A stretch of DNA of 64,000 nt from Synechococcus sp. KORDI-52 (lineage in GTDB: Bacteria; Cyanobacteriota; Cyanobacteriia; PCC-6307; Cyanobiaceae). The notes beneath the pieces are model-generated. The model was not told the origin of the DNA. It saw only the letters and a program-made list of their open reading frames with translations, and did no database searches. This document shows positions 18,578-42,847 of the stretch, one piece after another (position 1 is the first letter of the stretch; every line of letters starts with the position of its first letter). A program made the position numbers and the translations under genes. The stretch is taken from assembly GCF_000737595.1 (NCBI RefSeq), contig NZ_CP006271.1:248001-312000 (forward strand), read 5' to 3'.

Positions 18578-19829
18578 TCAGGGAAAATAATCGCGCCTTA
18601 CTCCCGTTACATCGCAAAAACGACGATGGGCATCGCGATCCAACAACCTTGAAATTCCTTTTTTAATTAGTAATTCCAAAGGATCGCTGGGGTCGTATGT
18701 TTGCGCCAAATAGACTCGTGATCTCTCGACAAAGCTTTGTAAACGCAGAACTTCTAGACGTGAAAACTCAATGCCACAGAAATCAACAAGCTTTAAGGCA
18801 TTACCAACCGAATCAAAAGTATGCTCATAAGAGGAAAAGCAAAAGCGCGAAAAAACATCAGGTCGTTTATCATGCAAATGTATTATCTGCCTAATGCTTG
18901 AATTGTATAAAAGAATGGTATGCTCAATTCCCTTTTCAGGACTCCAACGATCCTACCGGTCAATACATCTTTTGTGAGAAGATCTACATATATCGACAAG
19001 GGATCTCTCCATATAAATACATTTAAAATATTCAAACCCTATATCATCAAAAGAAGACTCTGCACAAAATTCAAAGTAAGGCCTTTTATCTCCAATAACT
19101 TTAGATGATGAATGCTTTGGAAGCAGTTCAATAAATTGATGTTTACGATGATCCTTAGAAGCCATTTCCAGCAATTTAATTTCTGAAAAATCGAATCGCG
19201 AATAGCCCTCAAGCCTAAAAATGAGTACAATTCAGTATATATTTCAACGGAAGAGGAAATATTCAACAATTTACCCAAGGCTGTTGTACCACTGCGACCA
19301 AGACCAGCTATGAATACATGCTTCTTAGGCACGACGTAGTTATTAACACAAGCCGATCGCTTTGATTGAAGAATTTCAAAAAAATGCGGTGTAGAAGAAT
19401 ATGTAATTAAATCTTCCGGGCATAATCGAATATTATCACTCTCGCTTCGATCCATGGTCTTCTCTTCAATACCTAAATAGCAATTTACATACCTGAGATA
19501 TTTAATTAATTTAATTTCACAAGGAAACCATTCTAAACCAGCCTGCAAGGTTGCTCGAGATTCTTCAAATCTCTTGAGAAGGAGCAAGGTCTTTGCATTA
19601 ATCAAGTATACATTGAAATTTTGAGGATAGGAATCAGTAAGAAGTTTTGAAAACGCAAGAGACTGTTGATGATCACCCAAAGAACGATATAGATTGGTAG
19701 CAAGAACAAGAAGATTAAATTGTGAAGGGAATTGCTTGAGTCCACATATAATTTTTTTTCTGCAGTAATTAAATCTCTCGCCTTGATAGATCGTCTTGCA
19801 GAGAGAAAGACTTCTTCCAAGCTGGTCAT
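18578..19829 (-). pseudogene. Broken TPR-sulfotransferase gene (two frameshifts, one in-frame TAG)
   Basis: Four open pieces on the reverse strand read as one protein: a start MTSLEEVFLSARRSIKARD (19829), TPR-like sequence after a frameshift in an A8 tract (19752-19759), GDHQQSLAFSKLLTDSYPQN, then the sulfotransferase loop HVFIAGLGRSGTTALGKLL. A second frameshift near 19205-19225 leads to RFDFSEIKLLEMASKDH, VIGDKRPYFEF and YMERSLVDICRS. An in-frame TAG at 18955-18953 is followed without frame change by DRWSPEKGIEHTILLYN and the C-terminal FSRFCFSSYEHTFDSV. Both shifts behave as 1-base losses; restoring them gives 418 codons, normal for TPR-sulfotransferases, which would sulfate glycans. The three lesions make loss of function most likely. 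Confidence 0.8.
19752..19759 (-). repeat. A8 homopolymer at the first frameshift
   Basis: Eight T on the plus strand (A8 in the gene) lie exactly where the TPR-sulfotransferase frame changes. Nine A would join the two frames (EKKIICGLKQFP). Such tracts slip during replication, so the first lesion could vary between cells, or be a sequencing error. Confidence 0.6.
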
Positions 19830-20093: not shown

Positions 20094-20765
20094 TTAACGC
20101 AAGGATCTAAGATATAAATCAAAATCAATGCTATGCTTTTCCCTCAAGTAACTAAGGTCGTCTGCCTCGATATTTTCTATACTAAACAAATTTACACTGG
20201 GATCGAGATCAGTGGTTTTATTTCTAATTTTCATTTATGACAAACTAATCTTAAGTTCTTCAGCAAAAAAATTACTGAAACCTTTGATAGAATTTTCAAT
20301 CGGAAAGAGCTTCATTATTTCAACTATATCATCGATAGATGATTTATCAGAAGGCTTGAGGAAATCATATTGAATGTTAGCTGGTTGAAGCTTTATGTAA
20401 TCCATCGGAGACATTCCTCTAATTTCATCGTGCAACCGGTGTTTAACATTACAAGAAACATAGTTGTATTCGCTCACCAATCTTTCGACGGGGTTTCTGA
20501 CAGAGGTCAATATCTGGACATTTCCATCATCAAATTCTCTCTTGGCATAGCTGTTCTTTAAAAAATCGGACAAACGCAAATGCCCCACAACCGCAGATAT
20601 ACCTTTAAATTCATGACTACTTAAATCCGGGAATTTATCGCTACTTACATCAGAGCCGAAAGCTCTCCACACTTTAATGCACCTCCCACGCCCAAAAGCC
20701 TCATAAAAGCCCTGCTTCAAGGTTTGGCCGCCAGCTTTTGGGATATGGGGGAAAAAAACTAACAC
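20094..20765 (-). pseudogene. Sulfotransferase (family 2-like) interrupted by in-frame TAA
   Basis: The reading frame begins at GTG 20765 with FFPHIPKAGGQTLKQGFYEAFG, the PAPS 5'-phosphosulfate loop of the Sulfotransfer_2 (heparan 2-O-sulfotransferase-like) family, and has LTSVRNPVERLVSEYNY as the 3'-phosphate-binding segment. It stops after 176 residues at TAA (20237-20235). The same frame continues directly for 46 codons (DPSVNLFSIENIEADDL, YLREKHSIDFDLYLRSLR) to a second TAA at 20096-20094, and this tail looks like the family C-terminus. Total 222 sense codons, close to relatives. A TAA also lies directly before the GTG, so the 5' end may be damaged as well. A shortened but active 176-residue enzyme cannot be excluded. 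Confidence 0.65.
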
Positions 20766-21413
20766 TTAGCAGTAGCTACAAAACCTAAATTAGACTTTAC
20801 CATACAATTAAGCGCGGGCACATAAAACGATTGATGTTCAGAAGTTTATTCTACCCAAAACCAGCAAAAGCATGGGAAAATGAATATTCAAGCGACGTAC
20901 ACTAAAAATCAAAAACATTTCTATTCATTGAAGCCAAAAAAAGGCGGAGGCGTAAGGCGTAGTTCCTCCATCTCAAGAAAAGCCAAGACACAAACCAGCC
21001 TCAAAAGCAGTTTAAAATTAATCGAAGCTTGTCATCATGATTGAATCATCGAAGAATATCTTGCAACATCATCCAACAAAAAACTCCTTAAATACCTAAA
21101 AAAACAATCTCTAGCGACCGACAACATCATACGAAATTAAGAATGACATGCTATACAAGGAAAATCTCTCGTTGCGGTATCAAAAGCGGAAAAGCTTAAA
21201 TCGCGACAAAAGACTATAAAAAGATTCAGAATAAGTAATAAGTGCAGCAGCATGCAGGTATATTCACACAGCACAAGAAAATCATTGATAGCCTGAACAA
21301 AAAATACTATCACAGCTGAAATGCCAACAATGCAATACCTAAGCGGGGTTGTAGCCACAAACCCAAGTGGCATCAACTAATGTGGTAAGATATATTAAGT
21401 GGTGACGGAATTC
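20766..21413. other. 650-bp AT-rich region without a recognised gene
   Basis: This stretch separates the broken sulfotransferase from the giant glycosyltransferase and must hold the promoter of the latter. Stop codons are frequent in all frames. A 79-codon hydrophobic frame on the reverse strand (21137-21376) has no support. A short GGAGG/CCTCC inverted repeat at 20946-20969 is too weak to call. The region may be decayed sequence. Confidence 0.5.
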
Positions 21414-24400
21414 ATGAGCGCTTTAAATAGCAAACTTCATGTAATTTCTCAAACACTGAATCAAGAATTAATAGAGCAAATATTAAGACCATTAAATGCT
21501 ACCATTTGCGATAAAACTTCTGCCTTTAATATCTATAAAGGAAAAAACAATATTGATGCATACCTTGAAAACATCAAGCAAACATATTTGAAGTCGAGCG
21601 AAGATCTGAGCAAAACAGTTGAATGTGATGTGCTGGCCTATTTAGGCATGGCCAGTAGAGACGATTATTTGAACCAATTCAATAATGTGTGCCAAGAATT
21701 AGAAAATAGATCAATCAGAGTGTCACGACACTACACAAAAACAACCTCCATACAACTGCAAGAAAATAATTTAATACTTTCAAAATCATTGCTTTTATTT
21801 GCAAAGCATATCTGCAAAACATTTAGAATCTACAGGCATGTATCAGATCAAGGAGAGTATGTTGAAAGACTTTGTGAGCTAGAGATAAGCAGAATTATAA
21901 AGCCAAGCTTTGTGAATATGTTCATGCGCACGAAACTCCTGCTTGTGTATGCAAGTATGCAGCCAGAAGATTGCTTGATGGTAAACATATTTAAAAAGCT
22001 TGGAGTCAAAACAGCGACATTACAGCATGGATTGTACGTTAACTACCTTAATACAGACACAATTAACAAGATAAATTATCAAATACAGCCAGCAGAGCAT
22101 TTCTTGTCATGGGGGGATGAAACTAGTCAGCTAATTTACAGTTATCATCCAAAAACTATCATTCATAATTGTGGGCGTCCAATATTATACGCAGAAAAAA
22201 ACATTGCAAGTGATAAAAGCAAAAAAAAAGTAATTTTGATTTGCCTCGATCAAAAGCTTTATGAAGCTGAAAACTTAAAAATGATAGAAACTGTTGTTGA
22301 AGCAAAGAATGTATTACAGGATCAAAATTATGAGATTAAATTGCGACTTCACCCACAGTTACGCCCAAACTTTTACAAACAAAATTTTCCAGACCTAGAT
22401 CAATGCGGAGAATTATCTGACACGACATTGCTTATTGGACACACTACAACCATGTTGCACGAAGCAGCATACAAAGGACTACGAACTTACAAATTCAAAA
22501 CAGTAGCAGAATGCGTTTCTTTCCCGGCAAAGTATTGCTTTAGTAGCCCACAAGAGCTCATAGAAATACTACAAAGTCCAATTCCCTATAATAATAGTTT
22601 TACGCGACAATTTTTTCATTCAGTTGGCACAGAAGCTATAAATAAAAGCGCTAATGCGATTCAAGCCATAATTGATGAATACGAAATTGAGCCAAACACT
22701 ATTACCTATAAACTAGAAAGAACAAGCGATACCACGCTCACGATTTCCAATGAAGGAAGAATCCTACCAGCTCAAACATTTGTAATTGCCACAACAGTTT
22801 TTAATGAGACAAATTATATCGAAGAGACAATTAATTCGATTCTACACCAAGAAGGAGATTATGAACTTTATTACATAGTCAAGGATGCCTCAAACAACAT
22901 AAAATCATCAATAGAAATTGGCCAAATACTTGGTCGCAAGATACCCATGCTTGCAGTAAATAATAAAAAAATTAATATTATATATGCACACAAATCAGAC
23001 TCTGGGATGTACGAAGGCCTTCTTGATGCCTTCAGTTTAATCAGATACAATCCTAAGCCTGATGATATTGTCAGCTACATAAATGCAGATGATATACTAG
23101 AAAGTGACGCTTTTGAAAAAGTACAATTTGCATTTAAAAATAAGAATTGCAAACTGCTATTGGCTCGTACGACAACAATCAATTCTAAAGATGGTGGCAA
23201 TAGGCGAGTACAAAAATCACCCTATCACTACAGTTCAAAGAAAATGATTGAGGGGACACCATATCTTGGAATTGATGAAAATGCATTTATTCAGCAAGAG
23301 GGATCTTTTTGGTCGGGTTCAATCCACACCAAGGTACTAGAAGTACTAAATCTGAAGCCAAAAGTAGCTGGTGACTATTTAATCTGGAAATACTTATCTA
23401 GGTTTACTGAGTTTTATATAAGTTCAATAACAACTGGTCTATTTAGAATGAGAATTGGTCAGAAGTCCGAAGATATTGACAGTTACTTTAGAGAGATCAA
23501 AGAACTTGCGAAGCACCCGTTATTCACCTCATCTATTAACAATAATGATGCAGATGATATTGGATATCTCTTCATGGCCGCATCACAAGAGATTTGCAAA
23601 TTTCCCTTATTCGCAGCATTTCGATCAACAAATAATAGATTAAGTCATTCATTGGTGATTTCAGATGATACTGTGAATTCAAGTGCTAAATATTTTAAAC
23701 CAAATGAATTGAGAATATTTGCAGAGATTGAGAATGCTTGCACGGATTCGCAGCTAAGTGAATCAAATTTAATAGGCAATTGGCATCAGATTGATACAAT
23801 TTACCACAAGGCGCATAATTGCACCTACAACATAACTGAAATAATTCAACAAGACAATTCGTACGAACTATGTGTTGACTTTTTGGTTGCTAATAAAGAA
23901 ATAAATCACAAGAAAATCGGAATTGGAATTACTGTATCATTAGAATGTAATAATGAACGGCAATCATTCGATTTCTCTTATTCACTAGTACCGCATGTAA
24001 ATCTCTATAAGCTTAGGAGTATCATCAAAGTCAATGGTAATTTCATAAACCATTCCAAGTGTAAATTAAGTATTAAATTAAATGGTGAGTCATCGAAAAA
24101 CACCGAAGTCTTTATTCCAAGAAACTTACTTTATCTCATCCCTAGAGCTAATCTTAGCAAGAATACAGTGGTCAAGAGCTCAGTATCAGTGATAACAATT
24201 ACATATAACGATTTAAAAAATTTAAAAAAAACTGTTGAGAGTTTTAAAAAGTTCTCAGCACTAAACACGCAATTTAAGCTTGAATATATTGTCATTGATG
24301 GCAATTCCACTGATGGAACAAAAAGCTATCTCCAATCACAGTCACAATATATAGATAAGTTTATTTCGGAAAAGGATTCAGGAATATATGATGCAATGAA

Positions 24401-24926
24401 CAAAGGAATCAAGATGGCAGGAAAAGAATATGTGTGGTTCATGAATGCTGGCGATGAATTTATTCCTAAAAAGCTGTTTAAACTTGACTTATTATTGAAG
24501 GAACATGCCTATGATGTAATCTATGGTGACAGGATTTATATAGATACTGATGACAACAAAGAATATACTCAAAAAGCCAAAAAAATATCAGAAATTCAAT
24601 ACGGGATGTGTTTTGGCCATCAATCAACAATTTACAATAGACAAATATTAGAAAAGTATTTATTTAATCTCACATATAAATATGCCGGCGACTATGAGCA
24701 ACTTATTAGATTGTACTTAAACAATAAATCATTTAAATATATCAGTTTCCCTCTATGCAGGTTTTATTCTGGAGGGGCTTCAGAATCAGGAATAGGGCCT
24801 CATTTAGAGGCAACATATATTCAATCAAAGTACTTTAAGGCAGATACACTGAAGAAAAGTAGATATATTAACGGATCTATAATTCATCTTAAAAATATAA
24901 TGGAAGAAGTAAAGCATGGAAACTAG
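21414..24926 (+). CDS. Giant glycosyltransferase with a GT-B-like and two GT2 modules
   Basis: 1170 residues from ATG at 21414 (GTG at 21399 also in frame). Residues about 130-440 resemble capsule/teichoic-type GT-B transferases: ATLQHGLYVNYLN near 200, HFLSWGDETSQL and IHNCGRP. A first GT2 module starts near 455 (FVIATTVFNETNYIEETINS, IVKDASN, YINADDILESD). About 780-910 looks like a beta-rich linker. A second GT2 module starts near 923 (SVSVITITYNDLKNLKKTVE, IVIDGNSTDGT, EKDSGIYDAMNKGI, FMNAGDEF). Each GT2 has a DxD-like metal site, so three sugar or glycerol-phosphate transfers may be combined to build a repeat unit. No membrane segment. Very AT-rich, consistent with transfer. The N-terminal module's donor is a guess. 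Confidence 0.85.
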   Translation: MSALNSKLHVISQTLNQELIEQILRPLNATICDKTSAFNIYKGKNNIDAYLENIKQTYLKSSEDLSKTVECDVLAYLGMASRDDYLNQFNNVCQELENRSIRVSRHYTKTTSIQLQENNLILSKSLLLFAKHICKTFRIYRHVSDQGEYVERLCELEISRIIKPSFVNMFMRTKLLLVYASMQPEDCLMVNIFKKLGVKTATLQHGLYVNYLNTDTINKINYQIQPAEHFLSWGDETSQLIYSYHPKTIIHNCGRPILYAEKNIASDKSKKKVILICLDQKLYEAENLKMIETVVEAKNVLQDQNYEIKLRLHPQLRPNFYKQNFPDLDQCGELSDTTLLIGHTTTMLHEAAYKGLRTYKFKTVAECVSFPAKYCFSSPQELIEILQSPIPYNNSFTRQFFHSVGTEAINKSANAIQAIIDEYEIEPNTITYKLERTSDTTLTISNEGRILPAQTFVIATTVFNETNYIEETINSILHQEGDYELYYIVKDASNNIKSSIEIGQILGRKIPMLAVNNKKINIIYAHKSDSGMYEGLLDAFSLIRYNPKPDDIVSYINADDILESDAFEKVQFAFKNKNCKLLLARTTTINSKDGGNRRVQKSPYHYSSKKMIEGTPYLGIDENAFIQQEGSFWSGSIHTKVLEVLNLKPKVAGDYLIWKYLSRFTEFYISSITTGLFRMRIGQKSEDIDSYFREIKELAKHPLFTSSINNNDADDIGYLFMAASQEICKFPLFAAFRSTNNRLSHSLVISDDTVNSSAKYFKPNELRIFAEIENACTDSQLSESNLIGNWHQIDTIYHKAHNCTYNITEIIQQDNSYELCVDFLVANKEINHKKIGIGITVSLECNNERQSFDFSYSLVPHVNLYKLRSIIKVNGNFINHSKCKLSIKLNGESSKNTEVFIPRNLLYLIPRANLSKNTVVKSSVSVITITYNDLKNLKKTVESFKKFSALNTQFKLEYIVIDGNSTDGTKSYLQSQSQYIDKFISEKDSGIYDAMNKGIKMAGKEYVWFMNAGDEFIPKKLFKLDLLLKEHAYDVIYGDRIYIDTDDNKEYTQKAKKISEIQYGMCFGHQSTIYNRQILEKYLFNLTYKYAGDYEQLIRLYLNNKSFKYISFPLCRFYSGGASESGIGPHLEATYIQSKYFKADTLKKSRYINGSIIHLKNIMEEVKHGN

Positions 24927-25051: not shown

Positions 25052-26167
25052 CTAAGGCATTATAGATTGAAAACTAGATGCAATGACTTTTTTATTATCA
25101 ATATACTGGATAATGGAAGTTCCAATAGAAGGGACAAGGACAAATCTATTACCTTGAGATGTTCTTTTTTTATCATTAATTAAATTATTTACGAGAACTT
25201 CTACGCTTGGAAAAAGACAATCAGGTTGATCAGAAATTAGAACAGGTAAATTATATTGCTTCAGAATCTTCTTGGTAAAATCAAGTAGATCAGAAGATAA
25301 GCTTGATTGATTAATTGAATTGATGGCACTTGCAGCACAAATCATGCCAAGTGCCACAGCTTCGCCATGACGATAATGATCTTGATATAAACCGTAAAAT
25401 GTTTCTATTGACTGCCCAAATGTATGGCCATAATTTAACGTGAGGCGTATCCCTTTTTCATTCGGATCATCTCCTACATGGAAAAGCTTGATCTTTGTAG
25501 ACCATATAACTAAATCGACTAAAGAAGCAATTTCTCTATTATTAGAAGCCAACAAAGTAGAGTTGTTCAGCAATTTTTTTGCTTGCGCGGCATCAGAAGT
25601 AACCGACATTTTAATCGCTTCGCAAATTCCTGCAAAATAATCTCGAGTATTTAAAGTCAACAAAAATCTTACGTCCATAAATACTGCCTTAGGGTTATAG
25701 TATGTTCCAATAGCATTAACTTGATCCTGAAAATTAATCCCAGTTTTACCACCGATTGCACTGTCAATCATAGAAGTTGTTGTTGTTGGAACCAAAACAA
25801 GTCCAGTTCCCCTCATATAGGTGCTAGCGACAAAAGCGGATAAATCACCTATAACGCCACCGCCTATAGCGACAATAACACCGTCTCTTGGAAGTTTAAT
25901 ATCTAACAACCACTTCATTGCAAGGCTGTAAGCTTCTAGTCCTTTAGATTGAAGCCCCCCTGGCAAGTATAAGCATTTATATTTGGCCAAGAAAATATTA
26001 AGCTCATTGTATAAAGAATTATCGTTTTCTTTGAAAAATTCGTCAACAATACAAACTACATTCTCTTGAGAATAACCGTCACAAAAATCAATAAGTTCGT
26101 TGATAGAGTTATCAGAAACGAGTACAGGATATTTACCAGAGCCAACTTTTGCATTAATAACTGTCAT
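25052..26167 (-). CDS. 3-dehydroquinate-synthase-like sugar-phosphate cyclase
   Basis: 371 residues of the AroB/sugar-phosphate cyclase family, which use NAD+ and a divalent metal to cyclise 7-carbon keto-acid or sugar phosphates. GGGVIGDLSAFVAS and IDSAIGGKTGIN bind the cofactor; metal ligands Glu183 (CEAIK), His248 (NYGHT) and His267 (YRHGEAV) are intact, as are Lys141, Lys186, Arg241 and Asn245. Two usually invariant substrate-contact positions differ: Gln252 replaces the His of GHTFGHAIE and Val150 replaces the Lys of GKN. It ends an operon with a KdsB-like gene and an SDR, its start sharing one base with the KdsB-like stop. A second copy of shikimate AroB is possible, but the context argues for an island sugar or cyclitol enzyme. 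Confidence 0.85.
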   Translation of the reverse strand: MTVINAKVGSGKYPVLVSDNSINELIDFCDGYSQENVVCIVDEFFKENDNSLYNELNIFLAKYKCLYLPGGLQSKGLEAYSLAMKWLLDIKLPRDGVIVAIGGGVIGDLSAFVASTYMRGTGLVLVPTTTTSMIDSAIGGKTGINFQDQVNAIGTYYNPKAVFMDVRFLLTLNTRDYFAGICEAIKMSVTSDAAQAKKLLNNSTLLASNNREIASLVDLVIWSTKIKLFHVGDDPNEKGIRLTLNYGHTFGQSIETFYGLYQDHYRHGEAVALGMICAASAINSINQSSLSSDLLDFTKKILKQYNLPVLISDQPDCLFPSVEVLVNNLINDKKRTSQGNRFVLVPSIGTSIIQYIDNKKVIASSFQSIMP

Positions 26168-26916
26168 CAGTATTTACCATAATAAGGATCATTAGTCATA
26201 GCCAAACGAGCTCTGTCTAAGTCATCTTGAAGATCTACCGAAAAGGAATCACCGTTAAGAGGAAGCGCAAGAATAGACATATCGTTCTCTAATGCTCGCA
26301 ATAACTCGACATTTTCAACAATTTCATTATGTGATTGGCTAAGATTTGAATATAATTCAAGGCTCCTTTTGCTGAACCCAATAATTGAAAGATGTTTGTA
26401 TATATGCTGAGGATTTTTATTATAAATATGAGGTATATTTGCTCTTGAAAGCGTCATCACACGATTACTATTTGATATTTGAACTCTCACAATAGAGTCC
26501 GATGCAGTGTAAGGAACTTTCAGTACAGGTAGTACTATGTCGTATTGTGAGGGCAAGTTAATGAGGCAATCTACAACTGCATCAATATGCGAAGGATCAA
26601 TTAGCGGTTCGTCGCCTTGAATGTCGATAAAGAAATCATCATTCAAACTATTTGCGGCTTGAGCAATTCTTTCAGTACCGTTAATACATCCAGATGAAGT
26701 CTTTATTACTTTAATGCCGAAGCCAGCGCACGTATCTGCAATCTTATCGCTATCAGTACAAACGAAAACGTCTGTTAGAGATTTAGAAAGAAGGGCTCTT
26801 TTGGCAGTATGAACAACCAACGGCATGCCAGCTATATCAGCAAGAGCTTTACCTGGAAGCCTTGTTGAAGACAATCTAGAAGGTATCAGACCAACACATT
26901 TTTTAGATGTGCTCAT
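26167..26916 (-). CDS. KdsB-like CMP-sugar-acid synthetase (cytidylyltransferase)
   Basis: 249 residues. The N-terminus GLIPSRLSSTRLPGKALADI is the CTP-binding motif of 3-deoxy-manno-octulosonate cytidylyltransferase; VFVCTDSDKIA, GTERIAQA, FIDIQGDEPLIDPSHI and the C-terminal FSVDLQDDLDRARL match the rest of the fold, including the metal-binding Asp residues. It should activate a sugar acid as its CMP ester. A separate canonical kdsB lies at 42068-42847 beside kdsC and kdsD, so this divergent copy probably handles another substrate, perhaps the product of the neighbouring cyclase. It overlaps the SDR stop by 4 bp and the cyclase start by 1 bp. Confidence 0.87.
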   Translation of the reverse strand: MSTSKKCVGLIPSRLSSTRLPGKALADIAGMPLVVHTAKRALLSKSLTDVFVCTDSDKIADTCAGFGIKVIKTSSGCINGTERIAQAANSLNDDFFIDIQGDEPLIDPSHIDAVVDCLINLPSQYDIVLPVLKVPYTASDSIVRVQISNSNRVMTLSRANIPHIYNKNPQHIYKHLSIIGFSKRSLELYSNLSQSHNEIVENVELLRALENDMSILALPLNGDSFSVDLQDDLDRARLAMTNDPYYGKY

Positions 26917-27659
26917 TTTGATGTCCAGCCTCCGTCACAGTATATCACAGAACCGGTCATATATGAATTTTTTTCTGAAATAAGGAACATAGCCATTTCT
27001 GCAATTTCTCGGCATTCTCCCCATCTCTTCAAAGGAGTTTGTTCAAGAGTCCATTCGTACAACTCTTTTTTATTTTCCTTAAACGCAGTCTCATATGAGC
27101 TTTTAGCAAAGCCTGGATTTAAACTATTAATCAAAATATTATCACTGGCTAATTCGACAGCCGCAGATTTAATAAAACCCTCAAGTGCCGATTTAGAGAC
27201 TCCATATGTAGATAGGTCGACAAAACCACGTTGGCCGACGATTGATGAAATCACCAAAATAGAGAGTGGTTTTGAGTTGTTTTCTCGTGTAGAAGCAAGA
27301 TGTTTTACGATATTAATTTGCGAAATCGTATTCGTCTCTAGAACCTGTCTGTATGTATCTATCAATGCATCTTTAATGCTAATCCTAGATCTCATGCCCG
27401 CATTGCATATTGCACAGTCAATTTGACCATTTACTTCTTGGAATTGGGTTATTAACGAATTCACTTCTAAATGTCGATTAATATCTAGCGCTTTGAAGAA
27501 AAATTGATCAGCATATCGATCTTGGAGATCCTGGACCTCCTTTGTTTTACTACGTGAAATACCTAATATTTTTCCATCTGGGTTGTTTTCAAAAAATTTT
27601 TCCGCACATGAAAGGCCAATTCCCCTGCCACACCCTGTAATTAAAGATATTCGAGCCAT
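26913..27659 (-). CDS. Short-chain dehydrogenase/reductase
   Basis: 248 residues from ATG at 27659. Classical SDR: cofactor motif ITGCGRGIG near residue 7, CNAGMRSR (NAG motif), catalytic Ser in ILVISSIVGQRG and YxxxK in STYGVSKSALEG, and the C-terminal GSVIYCDGGWTS. It reduces a ketone or oxidises an alcohol with NAD(P)H. An upstream in-frame codon at 27674 adds five residues. As first gene of the SDR/KdsB-like/cyclase operon it may reduce the keto group made by the cyclase or epimerise the sugar; this is inference. Codon use is AT-rich. Confidence 0.9.
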   Translation of the reverse strand: MARISLITGCGRGIGLSCAEKFFENNPDGKILGISRSKTKEVQDLQDRYADQFFFKALDINRHLEVNSLITQFQEVNGQIDCAICNAGMRSRISIKDALIDTYRQVLETNTISQINIVKHLASTRENNSKPLSILVISSIVGQRGFVDLSTYGVSKSALEGFIKSAAVELASDNILINSLNPGFAKSSYETAFKENKKELYEWTLEQTPLKRWGECREIAEMAMFLISEKNSYMTGSVIYCDGGWTSK

Positions 27660-27820: not shown

Positions 27821-28795
27821 TCAGATTGACCGTACTAGATTCTGTTCCATGTGCTCTTTGAAAGTATGGATAGTGTCACGAAGACCATCTTTCAACGATA
27901 TCGAAGAAGACCATCCAAGATCTCGAAGTTTACTAACATCGAGTTGTTTCTTTGGAGTACCATCAGGTTTACTTGCATCCCACAGAATGTTGCCTTTATA
28001 TCCAATGATATTAGCAATATAAGTTGCCAACTCACTAATTTTTAAATCTAACCCAGTACCTACATTAAGAAACTGAATATCGTCGGGATTTGGCTTCCAG
28101 TTTTCTAAGACAAATACACATGCGTCCCCAAGATCATCCACGTGCAAAAATTCGCGAAGTGGAGAGCCCGTCCCCCAACAACTCACGCTCTCTAAACTTG
28201 ATTTCTTAGCCTCATAAAAACGACGTATTAATGCTGGTAAAACATGACTGTTCTCAGGATGATAATTGTCTCCAGGGCCGTAGAGATTAGTTGGCATTAA
28301 ACTTATTGCATCAAAACCGTACTGCATCCTCAGTGATTGGCATAACTTAATGCCTGTAATTTTTGCCAACGCATACCATTCATTAGTCGCCTCCAGGGAG
28401 CCGGTCAATAAAGATTCTTCCTTGATAGGTTGCTCAGCGAACTTTGGATAAATACAACTGCTGCCAAGAAATAGCAATCGCTTTACTCCACTGCGCCAAG
28501 CTGTTTCGATCACATTTGTTTGTATTTTCATGTTCTCCAGCAAGAAATCAGCTGGATATGCATTATTTGCATGAATGCCGCCCACCTTGGCAGCGGCTAG
28601 CACAACCACAGTGGGTTTTTTTGAAGCAAACCAATGCTGAACAGCCTGAGGATTCAGTAGATCCAACTGATCCCGACTTGCCGTCAGCAGGTTCTCATAG
28701 CCACTGCGTTTTAATGCCCTACAGATCGCACTACCGGCCATACCGCGGTGGCCCGCAACAAAAAAACGATCATCTTTGTTTATTAACATCTCCAT
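27821..28795 (-). CDS. fcl: GDP-L-fucose synthase
   Basis: 324 residues from ATG at 28795, which shares its A with the gmd stop (TGATG). The enzyme epimerises and reduces GDP-4-keto-6-deoxymannose to GDP-L-fucose using NADPH. FFVAGHRGMAGSAICRAL binds the cofactor, LGSSCIYPKFAEQPI and NEWYALAKITG hold the catalytic Ser and Tyr-x3-Lys, and NSHVLPALIRRF and GTGSPLREFLHVDDL are family hallmarks. It follows gmd in a two-gene operon. Confidence 0.95.
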   Translation of the reverse strand: MEMLINKDDRFFVAGHRGMAGSAICRALKRSGYENLLTASRDQLDLLNPQAVQHWFASKKPTVVVLAAAKVGGIHANNAYPADFLLENMKIQTNVIETAWRSGVKRLLFLGSSCIYPKFAEQPIKEESLLTGSLEATNEWYALAKITGIKLCQSLRMQYGFDAISLMPTNLYGPGDNYHPENSHVLPALIRRFYEAKKSSLESVSCWGTGSPLREFLHVDDLGDACVFVLENWKPNPDDIQFLNVGTGLDLKISELATYIANIIGYKGNILWDASKPDGTPKKQLDVSKLRDLGWSSSISLKDGLRDTIHTFKEHMEQNLVRSI

Positions 28796-29931
28796 CAACC
28801 TTGGCTCCTTCTGGCCTGGATTGCTGCTGAGCTAGTCGGTGGATTTTCCATGGATCCCACCACGTTGAATCCCTTCAGACGCAGAATCCCTTCTTTACGA
28901 GCTTCTTCTCTATCTATTTGCACCATCTCTGCGACCAATTCCTCCAAAGTTGTCGTTGGCTTCCAACCCAACTTGGCATGGGCCTTACTGGGATCACCTA
29001 GCAATGTATCCACCTCCGCTGGGCGGAAGTAGCGCGGATCAATACGCACGACCACTTCACCAGTGCTGCGGCGACCCACTTCATCCAATCCCTGACCTTC
29101 CCACTCGAGAGCACCCCAGCCAAGCGCCTCTGCAGTGAGCTCGATGAAGCGCCGGACACTCTCCTGCCGGCCAGTGGCAATCACAAAGTCTTCAGGCGGC
29201 CCCTCCTGCTGCAGCATCCTCCATTGCATCTCCACATAATCACGGGCGTGGCCCCAGTCCCTTAGGGAATCAAGATTGCCCATGTAGAGGCAGTCTTCCA
29301 GCCCTTCATTGATCCGCGCCAAGCCCCGTGTGATCTTGCGGGTCACGAAAGTTTCGCCACGCCTTGGGCTCTCGTGATTGAAAAGAATGCCGTTGCAGGC
29401 ATACATGCCGTAGGCCTCGCGGTAGTTCACCGTAATCCAATAGCCGTACAACTTGGCCACGCCATAAGGGCTTCTCGGATAAAAAGGCGTGCTCTCTTTC
29501 TGAGGCACCTCCTGCACGAGTCCATAAAGTTCACTGGTACTAGCCTGATAAATCCGGGTTGTTTCAACTAAACCCAGAATTCGCACGGCCTCCAGGATCC
29601 TGAGGGTGCCGAGAGCATCACTATTGGCTGTGTACTCAGGCGCCTCAAAGCTCACAGCCACGTGGCTCTGGGCACCGAGGTTATAAATCTCATCAGGCTG
29701 CACTTGCTGGACAATCCGAATCAGGTTGGTGCTGTCAGTCAAATCCCCGTAATGGAGAACTAACCGTGGATCGGCCTCATGGGGATCCTGGTAGAGGTGA
29801 TCAATCCGGTTGGTGTTGAAGCTGCTTGCCCGACGCTTGATTCCATGGACTTCATACCCCTTCTCCAGCAGTAGTTCAGCCAGATAACTACCGTCTTGCC
29901 CAGTAATCCCGGTAATCAGAGCTTTTTTCAC
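28795..29931 (-). CDS. gmd: GDP-mannose 4,6-dehydratase
   Basis: 378 residues from GTG at 29931; a TTG four codons upstream is a weaker start. It converts GDP-mannose to GDP-4-keto-6-deoxymannose, the precursor of GDP-L-fucose. [18 protein letters not shown] is the NADP loop, and [20 protein letters not shown] with [11 protein letters not shown] holds the catalytic residues; [20 protein letters not shown] is specific to GMD. The 136-bp gap upstream separates it from the UDP-sugar operon and should hold its promoter. Confidence 0.96.
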
Positions 29932-30078
29932 ATTGCAGAGCAAGCTTGCACAAATATATCATCAAGAATTAACCTAGATGACGCTTTCAACCCCAAATAA
30001 CAAACAAGCGAATACCAAGCTTACTTTTTAGTTTGGCAATTATACCGCAGAAACGATGATAGCCTTGAAAGGCGCACC

Positions 30079-31098
30079 TTAATAGTAAACCCCTGCAAAC
30101 CAGGAAATAAACTTCTTTATTCCAACATCAATGGGAGTAGAGGGCTTGAACCCAACCCATTCTTCTAAAGCTGACGTATCAGCCGCAGTCGCCACCACAT
30201 CACCGGGCTGCATCGGCTGGAAATCCTTAAGTGCCTGCCTGCCGAGAGCTGCCTCCATCGTCTCGATGAAGCGCAGGAGCTCTGTCGGCTGGCTGTTGCC
30301 AATATTGAAAACCCGATGCGGTGCCGCCGCAGTAGCCGGGTCGGGTTGAAGGGGATCAAAATCAGGATTAGCAATGGCTGGTTTGTCGCAGCAACGGATC
30401 ACACCCTCAACAATGTCGTCGATGTAGGTGAAATCGCGCTGCATCTTGCCGTGGTTGAACACCTTGATCGGCTCACCGGCCAGTATCGCCCGAGCGAACA
30501 GCATCGGCGCCATATCCGGACGTCCCCAGGGGCCATACACCGTGAAAAAGCGCAGCCCCGTGGCCGGCAATCCATAGAGATGGCTGTAGGTGTGCGCCAT
30601 CAACTCATTGGCCTTCTTGCTGGCGGCGTAAAGACTCACCGGGTGATTGACCGGTTGACGCTCATGAAACGGCAGATTGCGGTTGCCGCCATACACCGAA
30701 CTGCTCGAGGCATACACCAGATTCCCAACACCGTGGTGCCTACAGCCCTCCAAGACATTGCCGAAGCCCACCAGGTTGCTCTGGATGTAAGCCGCGGGAT
30801 TCTCGAGCGAATAACGCACGCCAGCCTGAGCCGCCAGATTGACCACAACATCAGGCTTCTCGTCAGCGAAGAGTCCCATGAGGGCTGCGCCGTCTTCCAG
30901 AGCCATGCGCTCAAATCGCCAGGCTCCTGATGAGGCAACGGTTTCGATCTGCCGCAACCTCGCCTGCTTCAACGCTGGGTCGTAATAGTCGTTCAAGTTG
31001 TCGAGGCCAACCACCCGATCACCGCGTTGCAACAGCCGCTGCGACAGGGCCGCACCGATGAAACCAGCAGCCCCAGTCACAAGGACAGTCTTCGCCAT
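30079..31098 (-). CDS. UDP-glucuronate 4-epimerase
   Basis: 339 residues from ATG at 31098, sharing one base with the upstream dehydrogenase stop. An extended SDR: VLVTGAAGFIGAALSQRLL at the N-terminus, GLDNLNDYYDPALKQARL (typical of UDP-glucuronate epimerases), YASSSSVYGGNRNLPF and SLYAASKKANELMAH (Tyr-x3-Lys), then FFTVYGPWGRPDMAP. It interconverts UDP-glucuronate and UDP-galacturonate, supplying uronic acid for surface polysaccharide. It is the last gene of the hisS-uxs-ugd-epimerase run. Confidence 0.92.
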   Translation of the reverse strand: MAKTVLVTGAAGFIGAALSQRLLQRGDRVVGLDNLNDYYDPALKQARLRQIETVASSGAWRFERMALEDGAALMGLFADEKPDVVVNLAAQAGVRYSLENPAAYIQSNLVGFGNVLEGCRHHGVGNLVYASSSSVYGGNRNLPFHERQPVNHPVSLYAASKKANELMAHTYSHLYGLPATGLRFFTVYGPWGRPDMAPMLFARAILAGEPIKVFNHGKMQRDFTYIDDIVEGVIRCCDKPAIANPDFDPLQPDPATAAAPHRVFNIGNSQPTELLRFIETMEAALGRQALKDFQPMQPGDVVATAADTSALEEWVGFKPSTPIDVGIKKFISWFAGVYY

Positions 31099-32501
31099 CA
31101 ACCCTCTCCATCCCCCACACGCCAAAGAGTGAGGCCCGCCGCCCTCACTTGGGCGGGATCAGCAACAGCCCTGGCATCAAAAACCCAGGCCGGCTTGCGC
31201 ATCCGAGCGGCAAGAGAAATCCAGTTCAGGTTGCGGTAGGCCTGCCACTCGGTGAGCACAAGCACGGCATCAGCTCCCGTGACGGCGTCCTCAACACTGG
31301 CTGCCTGCGCCCAACTCCCGGTGCCACTGAGGGCATCCGCCTGGGGGGCTGCCTCCTGTTGCAGATCCCGGGCCATCTGATCACAGGCCACCTTGGGATC
31401 GTGAATGGCCAGCTGAGCGCCCTCCTCCAGCAAGTCCAGGCAGATCCGGATCGCCGGTGCCTCACGTGTGTCGTTGGTGTCGGCCTTGAAGGCAAAGCCA
31501 AGAATCGCCAGCCGCTTGCCGGTCACCGTGCCGAACAGCCTCTCCACCACCAACCGGGCGATGCGGTGCTGTTGCCAGGTGTTCAGGGCCACAACACTCT
31601 CCCAGTAATCCGCCACCTCCGGCAGGCCGAAATGGCGGCAGAGATACACCAGGTTGAGGATGTCTTTCTGGAAACAGCTGCCGCCGAATCCAGGCCCGGC
31701 ATTGAGAAATTTCGAGCCGATCCGGCTGTCGGTGCCAATCGCGCGGGCCACCTCGCGCACATCCGCCCCGCTGGCCTCACAGAACGCCGCAATCGAGTTG
31801 ATCGAACTGATCCGCTGTGCCAGAAAGGCATTAGCGGTGAGCTTGGAGAGCTCGCTGCTCCAGAGATTGGTACGCAAAATCTGCTGCTGCGGAACCCAGT
31901 GGGCGTAGATCGCGGCGAGGGCATCAATCGATGCCGGATCATCACCACCGATCAACACCCGGTCGGGAGCCTCCAGATCACGGATGGCCGTGCCTTCCGC
32001 CAGAAACTCAGGGTTGGAAAGAACCGAGAAGGTGCGCTGATCGTCTCCCTCACTGGCTGCTTCAAGGATGGTTTTGATCGCGGCAGCCGTACGCACCGGC
32101 AGGGTGCTCTTCTCCACCACGATCGTATGGCCGGTGGCCGCCTGCGCCACCTCGCGGGCACAGGCTTCCACCCAGCGCAGATCGCTGGCCTGTCCAGCCC
32201 CAAGCCCCTTGGTCTTGGTGGGGGTGTTCACTGAAATGAACACCATGTCTGCCGCGGCGATCGAGGCCGCCACATCGGTTGAGAACGAGAGGTTGCGCCC
32301 CCGCGCCCGTTTCACAACAGCATCCAAGCCGGGTTCGTAAACCGGCAACTTGCTGAAGTCGGCATCATTCCAAGCGTCGATCCGCGCCTGGTTGATGTCC
32401 ACCACCTGCACATCAACCTCAGGGCAGCGATCAGCGATCACTGCCATGGTCGGGCCGCCCACATATCCCGCACCGATGCAGCAGATCCGTTGAATGGTCA
32501 C
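31098..32501 (-). CDS. ugd: UDP-glucose 6-dehydrogenase, eukaryotic-like type
   Basis: 467 residues. It oxidises UDP-glucose twice to UDP-glucuronate with NAD+. [18 protein letters not shown], then [30 protein letters not shown] and NLSFSTDV read like animal and plant UGDH, not the shorter bacterial Ugd/KpsB type. The catalytic Cys lies in [20 protein letters not shown], and [17 protein letters not shown] is the UDP-binding end. It overlaps uxs by 4 bp and the epimerase by 1 bp, so the product is made beside the two enzymes that use it. Confidence 0.94.
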
Positions 32502-42067: not shown

Positions 42068-42847
42068 TCAGACCATGGCCCGGGCCTGTTCCAGCTGCTC
42101 AGCGGTGTCCACCGACAAGGATGTGCCCTGCACCCGGAACGTGGCGATGGTGAGTCCAGCCTCGATCAGCCGCAGCTGCTCGAGCCGCTCCAGATCCTCC
42201 AGGGATGAGGCAGGCAGCTGATCCCACGCAGCCAGCACGTCTCCCCGGAAGCCATACATGCCCACATGGCCCCAGTAGGTGGTGTGCTGATGCCAATCGG
42301 CCTCAGCCACGTCGCGCACATGGGGGATGGCGGAGCGGGAGAAATACAGGGCGCGACCGTCGTGGGCCAGCAGGGTCTTCACCACGTTGGGGTTGTGCAC
42401 CGATTCGGGCTTGAGCCCATAAACGGGGGTCACGACCGCAGGCACCGGATCCTGACGCCTGAATTCCTCGACCATGGCATCGATCACGGCGGGGTCAATG
42501 AACGGTTGATCGCCCTGAACGTTGATCACAGCCGTCTCCTCCGCCACGGGATCTGCATCGCCCCAGCCCAGGGCCATCAGGGGCTGCGCCACTGATGCGA
42601 TGCGCTCACTGCCGGAGTTGCAGGATGCCGCGGTCATCAGCACCGGGAAGCCCCAGCCCTCAGCCAGGCTCTGCAGCTCAGAGCTGTCAGTACAAAGCAC
42701 CACCGCTTCAACGCCGGAGGCCTGACGGCAGCGTTCCAGAACACGCTGGATCATCGGCTTGCCGCCGATGTCGGCCAGCACCTTGTTGGGCAGTCGCGAC
42801 GACTGAAGCCGGGCCGGAACGGCCACCACACACTTGCGAATCGCCAT
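42068..42847 (-). CDS. kdsB: 3-deoxy-manno-octulosonate cytidylyltransferase
   Basis: 259 residues from ATG at 42847, sharing a base with the upstream glycosyltransferase stop. CVVAVPARLQSSRLPNKVL is the CTP-binding loop; VLCTDSSEL, GSERIASVA, INVQGDQPFIDPAVID, YWGHVGMYGFR and LSVDTAEQLEQAR complete the family pattern. It makes CMP-Kdo. Beside kdsC and kdsD it is the canonical copy, unlike the divergent KdsB-like protein of the island. Confidence 0.94.
   Translation of the reverse strand: MAIRKCVVAVPARLQSSRLPNKVLADIGGKPMIQRVLERCRQASGVEAVVLCTDSSELQSLAEGWGFPVLMTAASCNSGSERIASVAQPLMALGWGDADPVAEETAVINVQGDQPFIDPAVIDAMVEEFRRQDPVPAVVTPVYGLKPESVHNPNVVKTLLAHDGRALYFSRSAIPHVRDVAEADWHQHTTYWGHVGMYGFRGDVLAAWDQLPASSLEDLERLEQLRLIEAGLTIATFRVQGTSLSVDTAEQLEQARAMV

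What the first reader, a model, noticed from the sequence alone, without database searches (positions are those of the whole stretch)
25052..27659. Three-gene operon (SDR, KdsB-like, dehydroquinate-synthase-like): candidate for a new CMP-activated sugar-acid or cyclitol pathway
Seen: the three genes overlap start-to-stop (4 bp and 1 bp) inside an AT-rich glycan island, and a separate canonical kdsB lies beside kdsC and kdsD at 42 kb. Known: cyclases of this family make carbocyclic keto compounds from 7-carbon phosphates, SDRs reduce ketones, KdsB enzymes couple CMP to sugar acids. Inference: the operon makes and activates an unusual acidic sugar or carbocycle for the envelope glycan. No aminotransferase of the known 8-amino-Kdo route is present.
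Basis: partly seen in the sequence, partly recalled or inferred. Interest (0 to 1): 0.75.

Follow-up and report, generated by a model that had tools for sequence, protein, structure and literature searches.

The report
Marine cassette for CMP-activated shikimate-derived acid
Three neighbouring genes, carried together by unrelated ocean bacteria and in altered form by a virus, look like a pathway that turns a shikimate-pathway intermediate into a CMP-activated acidic building block, which may be carbocyclic, for cell-surface glycans; no such building block is known to us.

Summary
In detail: SDR, KdsB-like and AroB-like genes overlap by 4 and 1 bp in an AT-rich island, and the genome has a separate kdsB and a separate aroB-like gene. 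The trio is a conserved cassette. It stands in the same order in 14 genomes, window included (cyanobacteria, Pelagibacteraceae, another alphaproteobacterium, Nitrospina). Its cyclases form one clade apart from AroB, and the three genes share one history. A Pelagibacteraceae genome and a viral contig pair the same cyclase and SDR with a NeuA/PseF-like cytidylyltransferase; in the viral contig that domain is fused to a DAHP synthase. The cyclase keeps 10 of 11 published DAHP-pocket residues. The substrate is therefore most likely DAHP and the end product a CMP-activated C7 acid. Whether this is carbocyclic (quinate-like) or a non-cyclised 3,7-dideoxy-heptulosonic acid is open: the two are isomers, and the carbocycle would be a poor classical glycosyl donor. 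The His-to-Gln change that looked telling also occurs in AroBs beside shikimate genes, so it is no evidence. Ten searches of open-licence papers found no description. No reaction is shown biochemically.

The parts
26913..27659 (-). SDR-family oxidoreductase, first gene of the cassette; proposed reduction of the ketone left by the cyclase
   Evidence: PF13561 152.6 bits; TGxGxGIG, NAG, S139, Y152, K156 invariant in 10 of 10 aligned
26167..26916 (-). KdsB-like CMP transferase (CMPS); proposed CMP activation of the acid
   Evidence: PF02348 133.6 bits; below the TIGR00466 kdsB cutoff (125.3 vs 155.2); K23, D102 and D228 invariant in 9 of 9; AF2 pLDDT 89.4, best PDB match CMP-Kdo synthetase 1gqc
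25052..26167 (-). AroB-like sugar-phosphate cyclase of a separate clade; proposed DAHP phospholyase/cyclase
   Evidence: PF01761 and PF24621; TIGR01357 275.6 vs cutoff 305; 10 of 11 DAHP-pocket residues; trio-type clade SH-aLRT 99
21399..24926 (+). 1175-aa ORF, convergent with the cassette: two GT2 stretches and an N-terminal 455 aa without a reliable family match; candidate user of the product (unproven)
   Evidence: PF00535 107.5 bits; no reliable match for the N-terminal part
27821..29943 (-). GDP-fucose synthase-like (27821-28798) and GDP-mannose 4,6-dehydratase (28795-29943): glycan context
   Evidence: NF047922 474.5 (cutoff 500), TIGR01472 570.4 (cutoff 415); similar genes beside the L054 trio (product names there read by eye)
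42068..42847 (-). canonical kdsB, not part of the cassette (in-genome control)
   Evidence: TIGR00466 194.4 vs cutoff 155.2; outside the CMPS clade

Best explanation
The trio is a horizontally spread three-enzyme pathway that branches from the shikimate route. DAHP from the cell's own DAHP synthase is dephosphorylated and cyclised by the dedicated AroB-clade enzyme, giving a carboxylated ring product (3-dehydroquinate or a relative). The SDR reduces the remaining ketone. The KdsB-like enzyme transfers CMP to the hydroxyl beside the carboxylate. That HO-C-COOH centre is the carbocyclic counterpart of the anomeric centre of Kdo and sialic acids. The CMP-acid then feeds a surface glycan. Shown: gene order, conservation, shared history, separate aroB-like gene and kdsB, active-site residues, and the viral DAHP-synthase fusion. 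Inferred: every reaction. I put about 0.7 on 'DAHP-derived C7 acid activated with CMP' and about 0.45 on its being carbocyclic.
For: Trios in the order SDR-CMPS-CYC in 14 distinct genomes, window included (in L127 the cyclase is cut by the contig end); gene gaps -4 to 107 bp in the nine measured. Searches from both sides agree. A cyclase motif alone (21 loci) led to 9 loci of marine organisms by name, 8 with the whole trio and 1 variant. A CMPS profile alone gave 4 of 400 and 7 of 266 genomes at 1e-60, each with the trio (one genome seems to be in both). Of the neighbours of ten loci only the cassette families are in all ten; next come NAD-epimerase-type genes in seven. Distance matrices of 12 trios correlate at r 0.93, 0.95, 0.90, P 0.0001. 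Fourteen trio-type cyclases are one side of a branch, SH-aLRT 99. 10 of 11 DAHP-pocket residues listed in PMC6262012 (passages) are invariant in 16 cyclases (one ends before the last residue). The same type of cyclase and SDR stands with a NeuA/PseF-like transferase in L016/L056 (PF02348 39.3 bits) and L069; in L069 it is fused to DAHP synthase, TIGR01361 361.3 vs 267.75. Of nine genomes (8 trio, 1 variant) 7 hold a second aroB-like gene, as does the window's genome.
Against: No biochemistry. A saturated CMP-cyclitol acid lacks the ring oxygen that makes CMP-Kdo a glycosyl donor. If the product were plain 3-dehydroquinate the host AroB could supply it, so a dedicated enzyme suggests something else. 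The link to DAHP synthase rests on one viral contig. In 2 of 9 genomes no second aroB was found (these genomes may be incomplete). CMPS relatives occur without a cyclase found nearby (Rhodobacterales plasmids; a phage contig beside a KDPG aldolase). The His-to-Gln change is shared with AroBs in shikimate neighbourhoods. No glycosyltransferase is conserved with the trio in all ten loci compared.
Confidence: 0.45

Rival explanations
1. The AroB-like enzyme oxidises DAHP, eliminates phosphate and re-reduces, but the ring is not closed through carbon. The enol is protonated to a 7-deoxy keto acid, the SDR reduces it to 3,7-dideoxy-heptulosonic acid, and the KdsB-like enzyme activates its true anomeric hydroxyl.
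For: Explains a dedicated enzyme beside the host aroB, the constant SDR partner, and why KdsB-like or NeuA-like transferases, both ulosonic-acid enzymes, can serve. Gives a normal glycosyl donor. The Lys of the AroB GKN motif is V or I and a following Phe is Tyr in 16 of 16 cyclases, against K in 17 of 17 and F in 16 of 17 AroBs.
Against: No known enzyme of the superfamily does this (recalled). Ring opening and aldol closure are thought to need little help from the enzyme (PMC7144000 passages), although PMC6262012 assigns an Asn a part in both (passages); that Asn is kept here. Roles of the changed residues were not established.
Confidence: 0.22
2. The cyclase makes ordinary 3-dehydroquinate and the SDR makes quinate as a glycan or lipid substituent; the CMP transferase activates another ulosonic acid, and the three genes merely travel together.
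For: High AroB scores (275.6 to 320.2 bits in six tested, cutoff 305). The trio CMPS clade also holds relatives without a cyclase found nearby.
Against: Overlapping or close gene order and matched histories; no synthase or aldolase for another ulosonic acid is shared by the ten loci compared; cytidylyltransferase::DAHP-synthase fusion.
Confidence: 0.12
3. The cyclase acts on sedoheptulose 7-phosphate (valiolone type), giving a cyclitol without a carboxylate; the KdsB-like protein is an ordinary CMP-Kdo synthetase.
For: Family members with that substrate exist (PMC5133447 and PMC4426668 passages).
Against: DAHP-pocket residues kept; KdsB motifs HxGxY and EQLR, which I recall as near the Kdo site, replaced by HxSxI and ELLR; separate canonical kdsB.
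Confidence: 0.06
4. A spare aroB and kdsB duplicated from the host and drifting.
For: Same families as host genes.
Against: Trio-type cyclases form one clade across bacterial phyla, away from host aroBs; the window cyclase is 30% identical to its own aroB and up to 50% to trio relatives.
Confidence: 0.03

Closest known systems
CMP-Kdo synthetase KdsB/KpsU (PF02348)
   Same: Fold (TM 0.90 to 1gqc), catalytic Lys and the two Mg-binding Asp (named K19, D95, D219 in the A. aeolicus enzyme, PMC3149649 passages)
   Different: Below the TIGR00466 cutoff; HxGxY to HxSxI and EQLR to ELLR; no kdsA, kdsC or kdsD shared by the ten trio loci compared
3-dehydroquinate synthase AroB (TIGR01357)
   Same: Domains; 10 of 11 DAHP-pocket residues
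   Different: Separate clade; GKN Lys lost, Phe to Tyr; host has its own aroB-like gene; partners are an SDR and a CMP transferase
TIGR04425 AroB-related putative phospholyase (viral loci L070-L092)
   Same: Also an AroB relative with an adjacent SDR and sometimes a CTP_transf_3-like gene
   Different: Separate clade (SH-aLRT 99); P0001 scores 189 against cutoff 400; other partners (SIS, TPP, NeuB-like) in some loci
Carbasugar pathways of validamycin and acarbose (recalled; PMC9200736 seen in a search listing only)
   Same: Idea of a nucleotide-activated C7 cyclitol
   Different: Those use sedoheptulose 7-phosphate, no carboxylate, GDP and allylic activation (recalled)
8-amino-Kdo route KdnA/KdnB-KdsB (recalled)
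   Same: Modified ulosonic acid activated by a KdsB-type enzyme
   Different: Aminotransferase plus iron-type dehydrogenase rather than SDR plus cyclase

Membership tests
AroB / 3-dehydroquinate synthase | Curated NCBIfam score TIGR01357 >= 305 bits | tested here: not met
   P0001 275.6; L012 301.1, L015 275.8, L027 292.8 below; the variants L016 320.2 and L069 307.9 above
AroB / 3-dehydroquinate synthase | DAHP-pocket residues (11 named in PMC6262012) | tested here: inconclusive
   10 of 11 in P0001, with the published spacing where I compared it; the 11th (His) is Gln in 12 of 16 relatives and also in 9 of 9 AroBs selected for it
AroB / 3-dehydroquinate synthase | Groups with host aroB genes | tested here: not met
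   14 trio-type rows on one side of a branch, SH-aLRT 99, quick search without bootstrap
AroB / 3-dehydroquinate synthase | Makes 3-dehydroquinate | not testable with these tools
   needs an assay
KdsB CMP-Kdo synthetase | Equivalog score TIGR00466 >= 155.2 | tested here: not met
   P0002 125.3; own canonical KdsB 194.4
KdsB CMP-Kdo synthetase | Catalytic Lys and Mg-binding Asp pair | tested here: met
   K23, D102, D228 invariant in 9 of 9; correspondence to K19, D95, D219 of PMC3149649 by motif
KdsB CMP-Kdo synthetase | HxGxY and EQLR motifs | tested here: not met
   HxSxI and ELLR in 9 of 9 and in the 3 sequences printed
TIGR04425 | Score >= 400 bits | tested here: not met
   P0001 189
Classical SDR oxidoreductase | TGxxxGIG and Ser-Tyr-Lys | tested here: met
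8-amino-Kdo route | KdnA/KdnB genes | not tested
   no dedicated search; no aminotransferase shared by the ten loci compared

The most novel reading that the evidence does not exclude
The cassette makes the first CMP-activated carbocyclic 'ulosonic acid' (a quinate-type carba-sugar acid made from DAHP), used by ocean cyanobacteria and Pelagibacteraceae and by a virus to build surface glycans, with a pseudo-glycosyl or phosphodiester transfer step still unknown.
Probability: 0.33. Interest if true: 0.9.

Novelty: new variant of a known kind. Interest (0 to 1): 0.72.

Why it matters
It would join the shikimate pathway to surface-glycan synthesis and add a new kind of CMP-activated acid in some Prochlorococcus, Synechococcus-like cells and Pelagibacteraceae, whose surface glycans are thought to matter in phage attack (recalled). 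It would also correct annotations that read such genes as extra aroB and kdsB. Three small proteins, likely soluble, and a substrate that can be made enzymatically make it directly testable.

Tried and rejected
The His-to-Gln change (His275 in A. nidulans numbering) as a mark of new chemistry: rejected. Nine AroBs selected for the same Gln (8 Chloroflexota, 1 Levyibacteriota) have it, and 7 of the 9 have other shikimate genes beside them, read by eye; 4 of 16 trio-type cyclases keep His. T131 and D176 also proved not universal (13 and 15 of 16).

Single-protein scans of viral contigs and genome contigs with P0001 or P0002 found no relatives. P0001 at 1e-52 found only itself in 386 phylum genomes and at 1e-46 only itself in 34 genus genomes; P0002 at 1e-40 found only itself in 292 phylum genomes. 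The later profile at 1e-60, on a larger draw of the family, found three more trios, so those results understate the spread. Plasmid and phage protein searches listed no match above 42% identity; four plasmid neighbourhoods were opened, none with the trio, and the others were not opened. The phage search with the fusion protein matched only its DAHP-synthase half in the rows shown. L063 and L064 are KdsB-like, fall outside the CMPS clade and were not examined for neighbours. The fusion protein folded alone gave pLDDT 38 and was not used. Phage CMPS relatives with a KDPG aldolase (L031) or without any cyclase found (L033-L035) show that the CMPS clade is not tied to the cyclase. Paper searches covered only open-licence papers and found no account of the trio in their listings; absence elsewhere is not claimed.

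Neighbour clustering was run on ten loci and not repeated for L069, L093-L095, L126 and L127. Chloroflexota fusions were cut to their last 370 residues for the tree. Only 7 of 23 TIGR04425-type viral cyclases were put in that tree.
Full report
What is there. Three minus-strand genes occupy 25052-27659: an SDR (248 aa), a KdsB-like protein (249 aa) and an AroB-like protein (371 aa), overlapping by 4 and 1 bp. They lie in an AT-rich stretch, 36.5% G+C against 56.7% for the window, beside genes for GDP-fucose and UDP-sugar synthesis and a 1175-aa ORF with two GT2 stretches. The genome (2.57 Mb, one contig) has a second aroB-like gene and a second kdsB. The second aroB-like gene was not scored against the aroB model (one search failed), but its pocket residues are intact.

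Family tests. P0001 is an AroB relative but scores below the curated aroB cutoff (275.6 vs 305). P0002 is a KdsB relative below the kdsB equivalog cutoff (125.3 vs 155.2), while above one looser subfamily cutoff (211.4 vs 193). The canonical KdsB at 42 kb passes both. Three other trio cyclases score 275.8, 292.8 and 301.1, and two variants pass (L016 320.2, L069 307.9), so the score alone does not separate them from AroB.

Finding relatives. Whole-protein scans failed. A degenerate pattern for the AroB motif N-x-G-H-x-x-G-Q, designed on P0001, gave 21 loci in the species-genome collection. Nine are titled Prochlorococcus, Pelagibacteraceae, Alphaproteobacteria or Nitrospina. After fetching more sequence, 8 of these 9 carry the full trio in the order SDR-CMPS-CYC. 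The ninth (L016/L056, Pelagibacteraceae) has SDR, cyclase and then a different cytidylyltransferase. The other 12 show no SDR or CMPS match in the 4 to 8 kb held; in 7 of them neighbours read by eye are shikimate genes.

Converse search. A profile of nine CMPS proteins (A5) reached 1e-60 in 4 of 400 genomes of the window's family and in 7 of 266 genomes of the genus of one Prochlorococcus genome. All of these carry the trio. Trios thus stand in 14 distinct genomes: the window, eight from the pattern, three and two more (in one, L127, the cyclase is cut by the contig end). The trio is rare: at the settings used, P0001 had no relative in the other 33 genomes of the window's genus, and in the family of one Pelagibacteraceae genome only that genome and two lesser KdsB-like matches came up among 53.

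Shared history. Distances among 12 trios correlate at r 0.93 (cyclase-CMPS), 0.95 (cyclase-SDR) and 0.90 (CMPS-SDR), each P 0.0001 by permutation. Fourteen trio-type cyclases, the two variants among them, are one side of a branch with SH-aLRT 99, apart from host aroBs, Chloroflexota-type AroBs and seven TIGR04425-type viral proteins (quick search, no bootstrap, several rows of unusual composition). CMPS proteins of the trio, with two Rhodobacterales and three viral-contig proteins, lie apart from canonical KdsBs (support 96), but the trio CMPS alone need two changes on that tree. Clustering the neighbours of ten loci, only the cassette families are in all ten (cyclase and SDR 10 of 10; KdsB-like 9 of 10, with a NeuA/PseF-like protein in the tenth). 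NAD-epimerase-type genes come next, in seven. No aminotransferase, aldolase, synthase or glycosyltransferase is in all ten. Of seven candidate glycosyltransferase-like neighbours scanned, three match TIGR04326 surface-carbohydrate proteins (one above cutoff).

Active site. PMC6262012 (passages) lists 11 residues of the DAHP pocket of S. aureus DHQS. P0001 has 10, with matching spacing. They are invariant in 16 distinct trio-type cyclases (L127 ends before the last). The eleventh, His, is Gln in 12 of 16; ten of those were chosen by that Gln or are the sequence the pattern was made from. That His is linked to a proton relay at C5 (PMC7144000 passages), but AroBs in shikimate neighbourhoods have Gln too, so it proves nothing. 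Two changes are specific in my set: the Lys of the GKN motif is V or I in 16 of 16 (K in 17 of 17 AroBs), and a following Phe is Tyr in 16 of 16 (F in 16 of 17). Their role is unknown to me. The CMP transferase keeps the catalytic Lys and the two metal-binding Asp and is modelled as a KdsB fold (pLDDT 89.4; best match 1gqc, E 6.9e-26). Its HxGxY and EQLR motifs are HxSxI and ELLR. That these lie at the Kdo site is recalled, and Rhodobacterales and viral relatives share all or part of the change.

The viral clue. Among 24 AroB-like loci in IMG/VR, L069 is the one that belongs to the trio clade among those placed. Its genes run: a HAD phosphatase fused to a nucleotidyltransferase domain, cyclase, SDR (start-stop overlap), an MptE-like ORF (33.8 bits, just under the cutoff 34.6), and a 498-aa ORF. 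The first ~225 residues of that ORF are cytidylyltransferase-like (PF02348, 1.6e-7), and the rest is a DAHP synthase (TIGR01361 361.3 vs cutoff 267.75). Of six proteins compared, the cytidylyltransferase half is most like the one in L056 (27% over 238 columns). So CMP transfer is paired with this cyclase and SDR through two enzyme types, and once is fused to the enzyme that makes DAHP. That is my main reason for DAHP as substrate. It is a single contig.

How it most likely works. Inferred: DAHP to a ring acid (cyclase, NAD), ketone reduction (SDR), CMP transfer to the hydroxyl next to the carboxylate. In quinate-type acids that centre has the same HO-C-COOH arrangement as the anomeric carbon of Kdo. 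The weak point is chemical: without a ring oxygen such a CMP ester is not a normal glycosyl donor. The rival in which the ring is never closed, giving 3,7-dideoxy-heptulosonic acid, avoids this and explains the dedicated enzyme, but needs a reaction without precedent that I know of in the superfamily. The two products are isomers. I give the DAHP-to-CMP-acid core about 0.7, the carbocycle 0.45, the rival 0.22.

Known or new. No paper describing the trio appeared in ten searches of an open-licence library. The pathway kind (CMP-activated sugar acids) is known; a shikimate-derived member would be a new variant, and a carbocyclic one would be more than that.

Noticed in passing
L070-L092 (23 viral contigs): A different AroB-like clade (TIGR04425 best in the 5 tested, 1 above cutoff) has an SDR gene directly upstream in 20 of 23 loci (some near-copies) and a CTP_transf_3-like hit in 9 of 23, with SIS/GmhA-like, TPP and NeuB-like genes in some: an uncharacterised phage-borne sister cassette.
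   Followed up: partly
PMC5371798 passages: Prasinoviruses carry '3-dehydroquinate synthase' and acetolactate synthase, read there as amino-acid genes; by analogy with the viral loci above they may be glycan genes. Not tested.
   Followed up: no
L031:4130-5547: Viral contig with a KDPG/KHG aldolase (PF01081 222.9 bits) overlapping a CMPS relative 49% identical to P0002: perhaps another CMP-activated 2-keto-3-deoxy acid.
   Followed up: partly
L010, L014, L017, L019, L020, L025, L026, L028: AroB parts of aroK-aroB-like fusions in Chloroflexota carry Gln at the position of DHQS His275; 6 of these 8 have other shikimate genes beside them, read by eye.
   Followed up: partly
L005:1063-1743 (match at C1:959912-960136 of the window's genome): A third cytidylyltransferase, 226 aa, looks NeuA/PseF-like; no family scan was run.
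   Followed up: no
window 27821-32501 and L054: The trio lies near gmd, fcl, an epimerase and a UDP-sugar dehydrogenase in both the window and Prochlorococcus AG-388-A04 (names in L054 by similarity and by eye).
   Followed up: partly
window 19039-19680, 20235-20765: Short ORFs with sulfotransferase-like domains (PF13469 below and PF03567 just above threshold) in the AT-rich island; they look partial by eye.
   Followed up: no
L006 and L007 (Rhodobacterales plasmids): KdsB-like genes with the same HxSxI motif (ELMR in place of ELLR), beside a HAD hydrolase and a glycosyltransferase in L006 (hypothetical proteins in L007), no cyclase annotated nearby.
   Followed up: no
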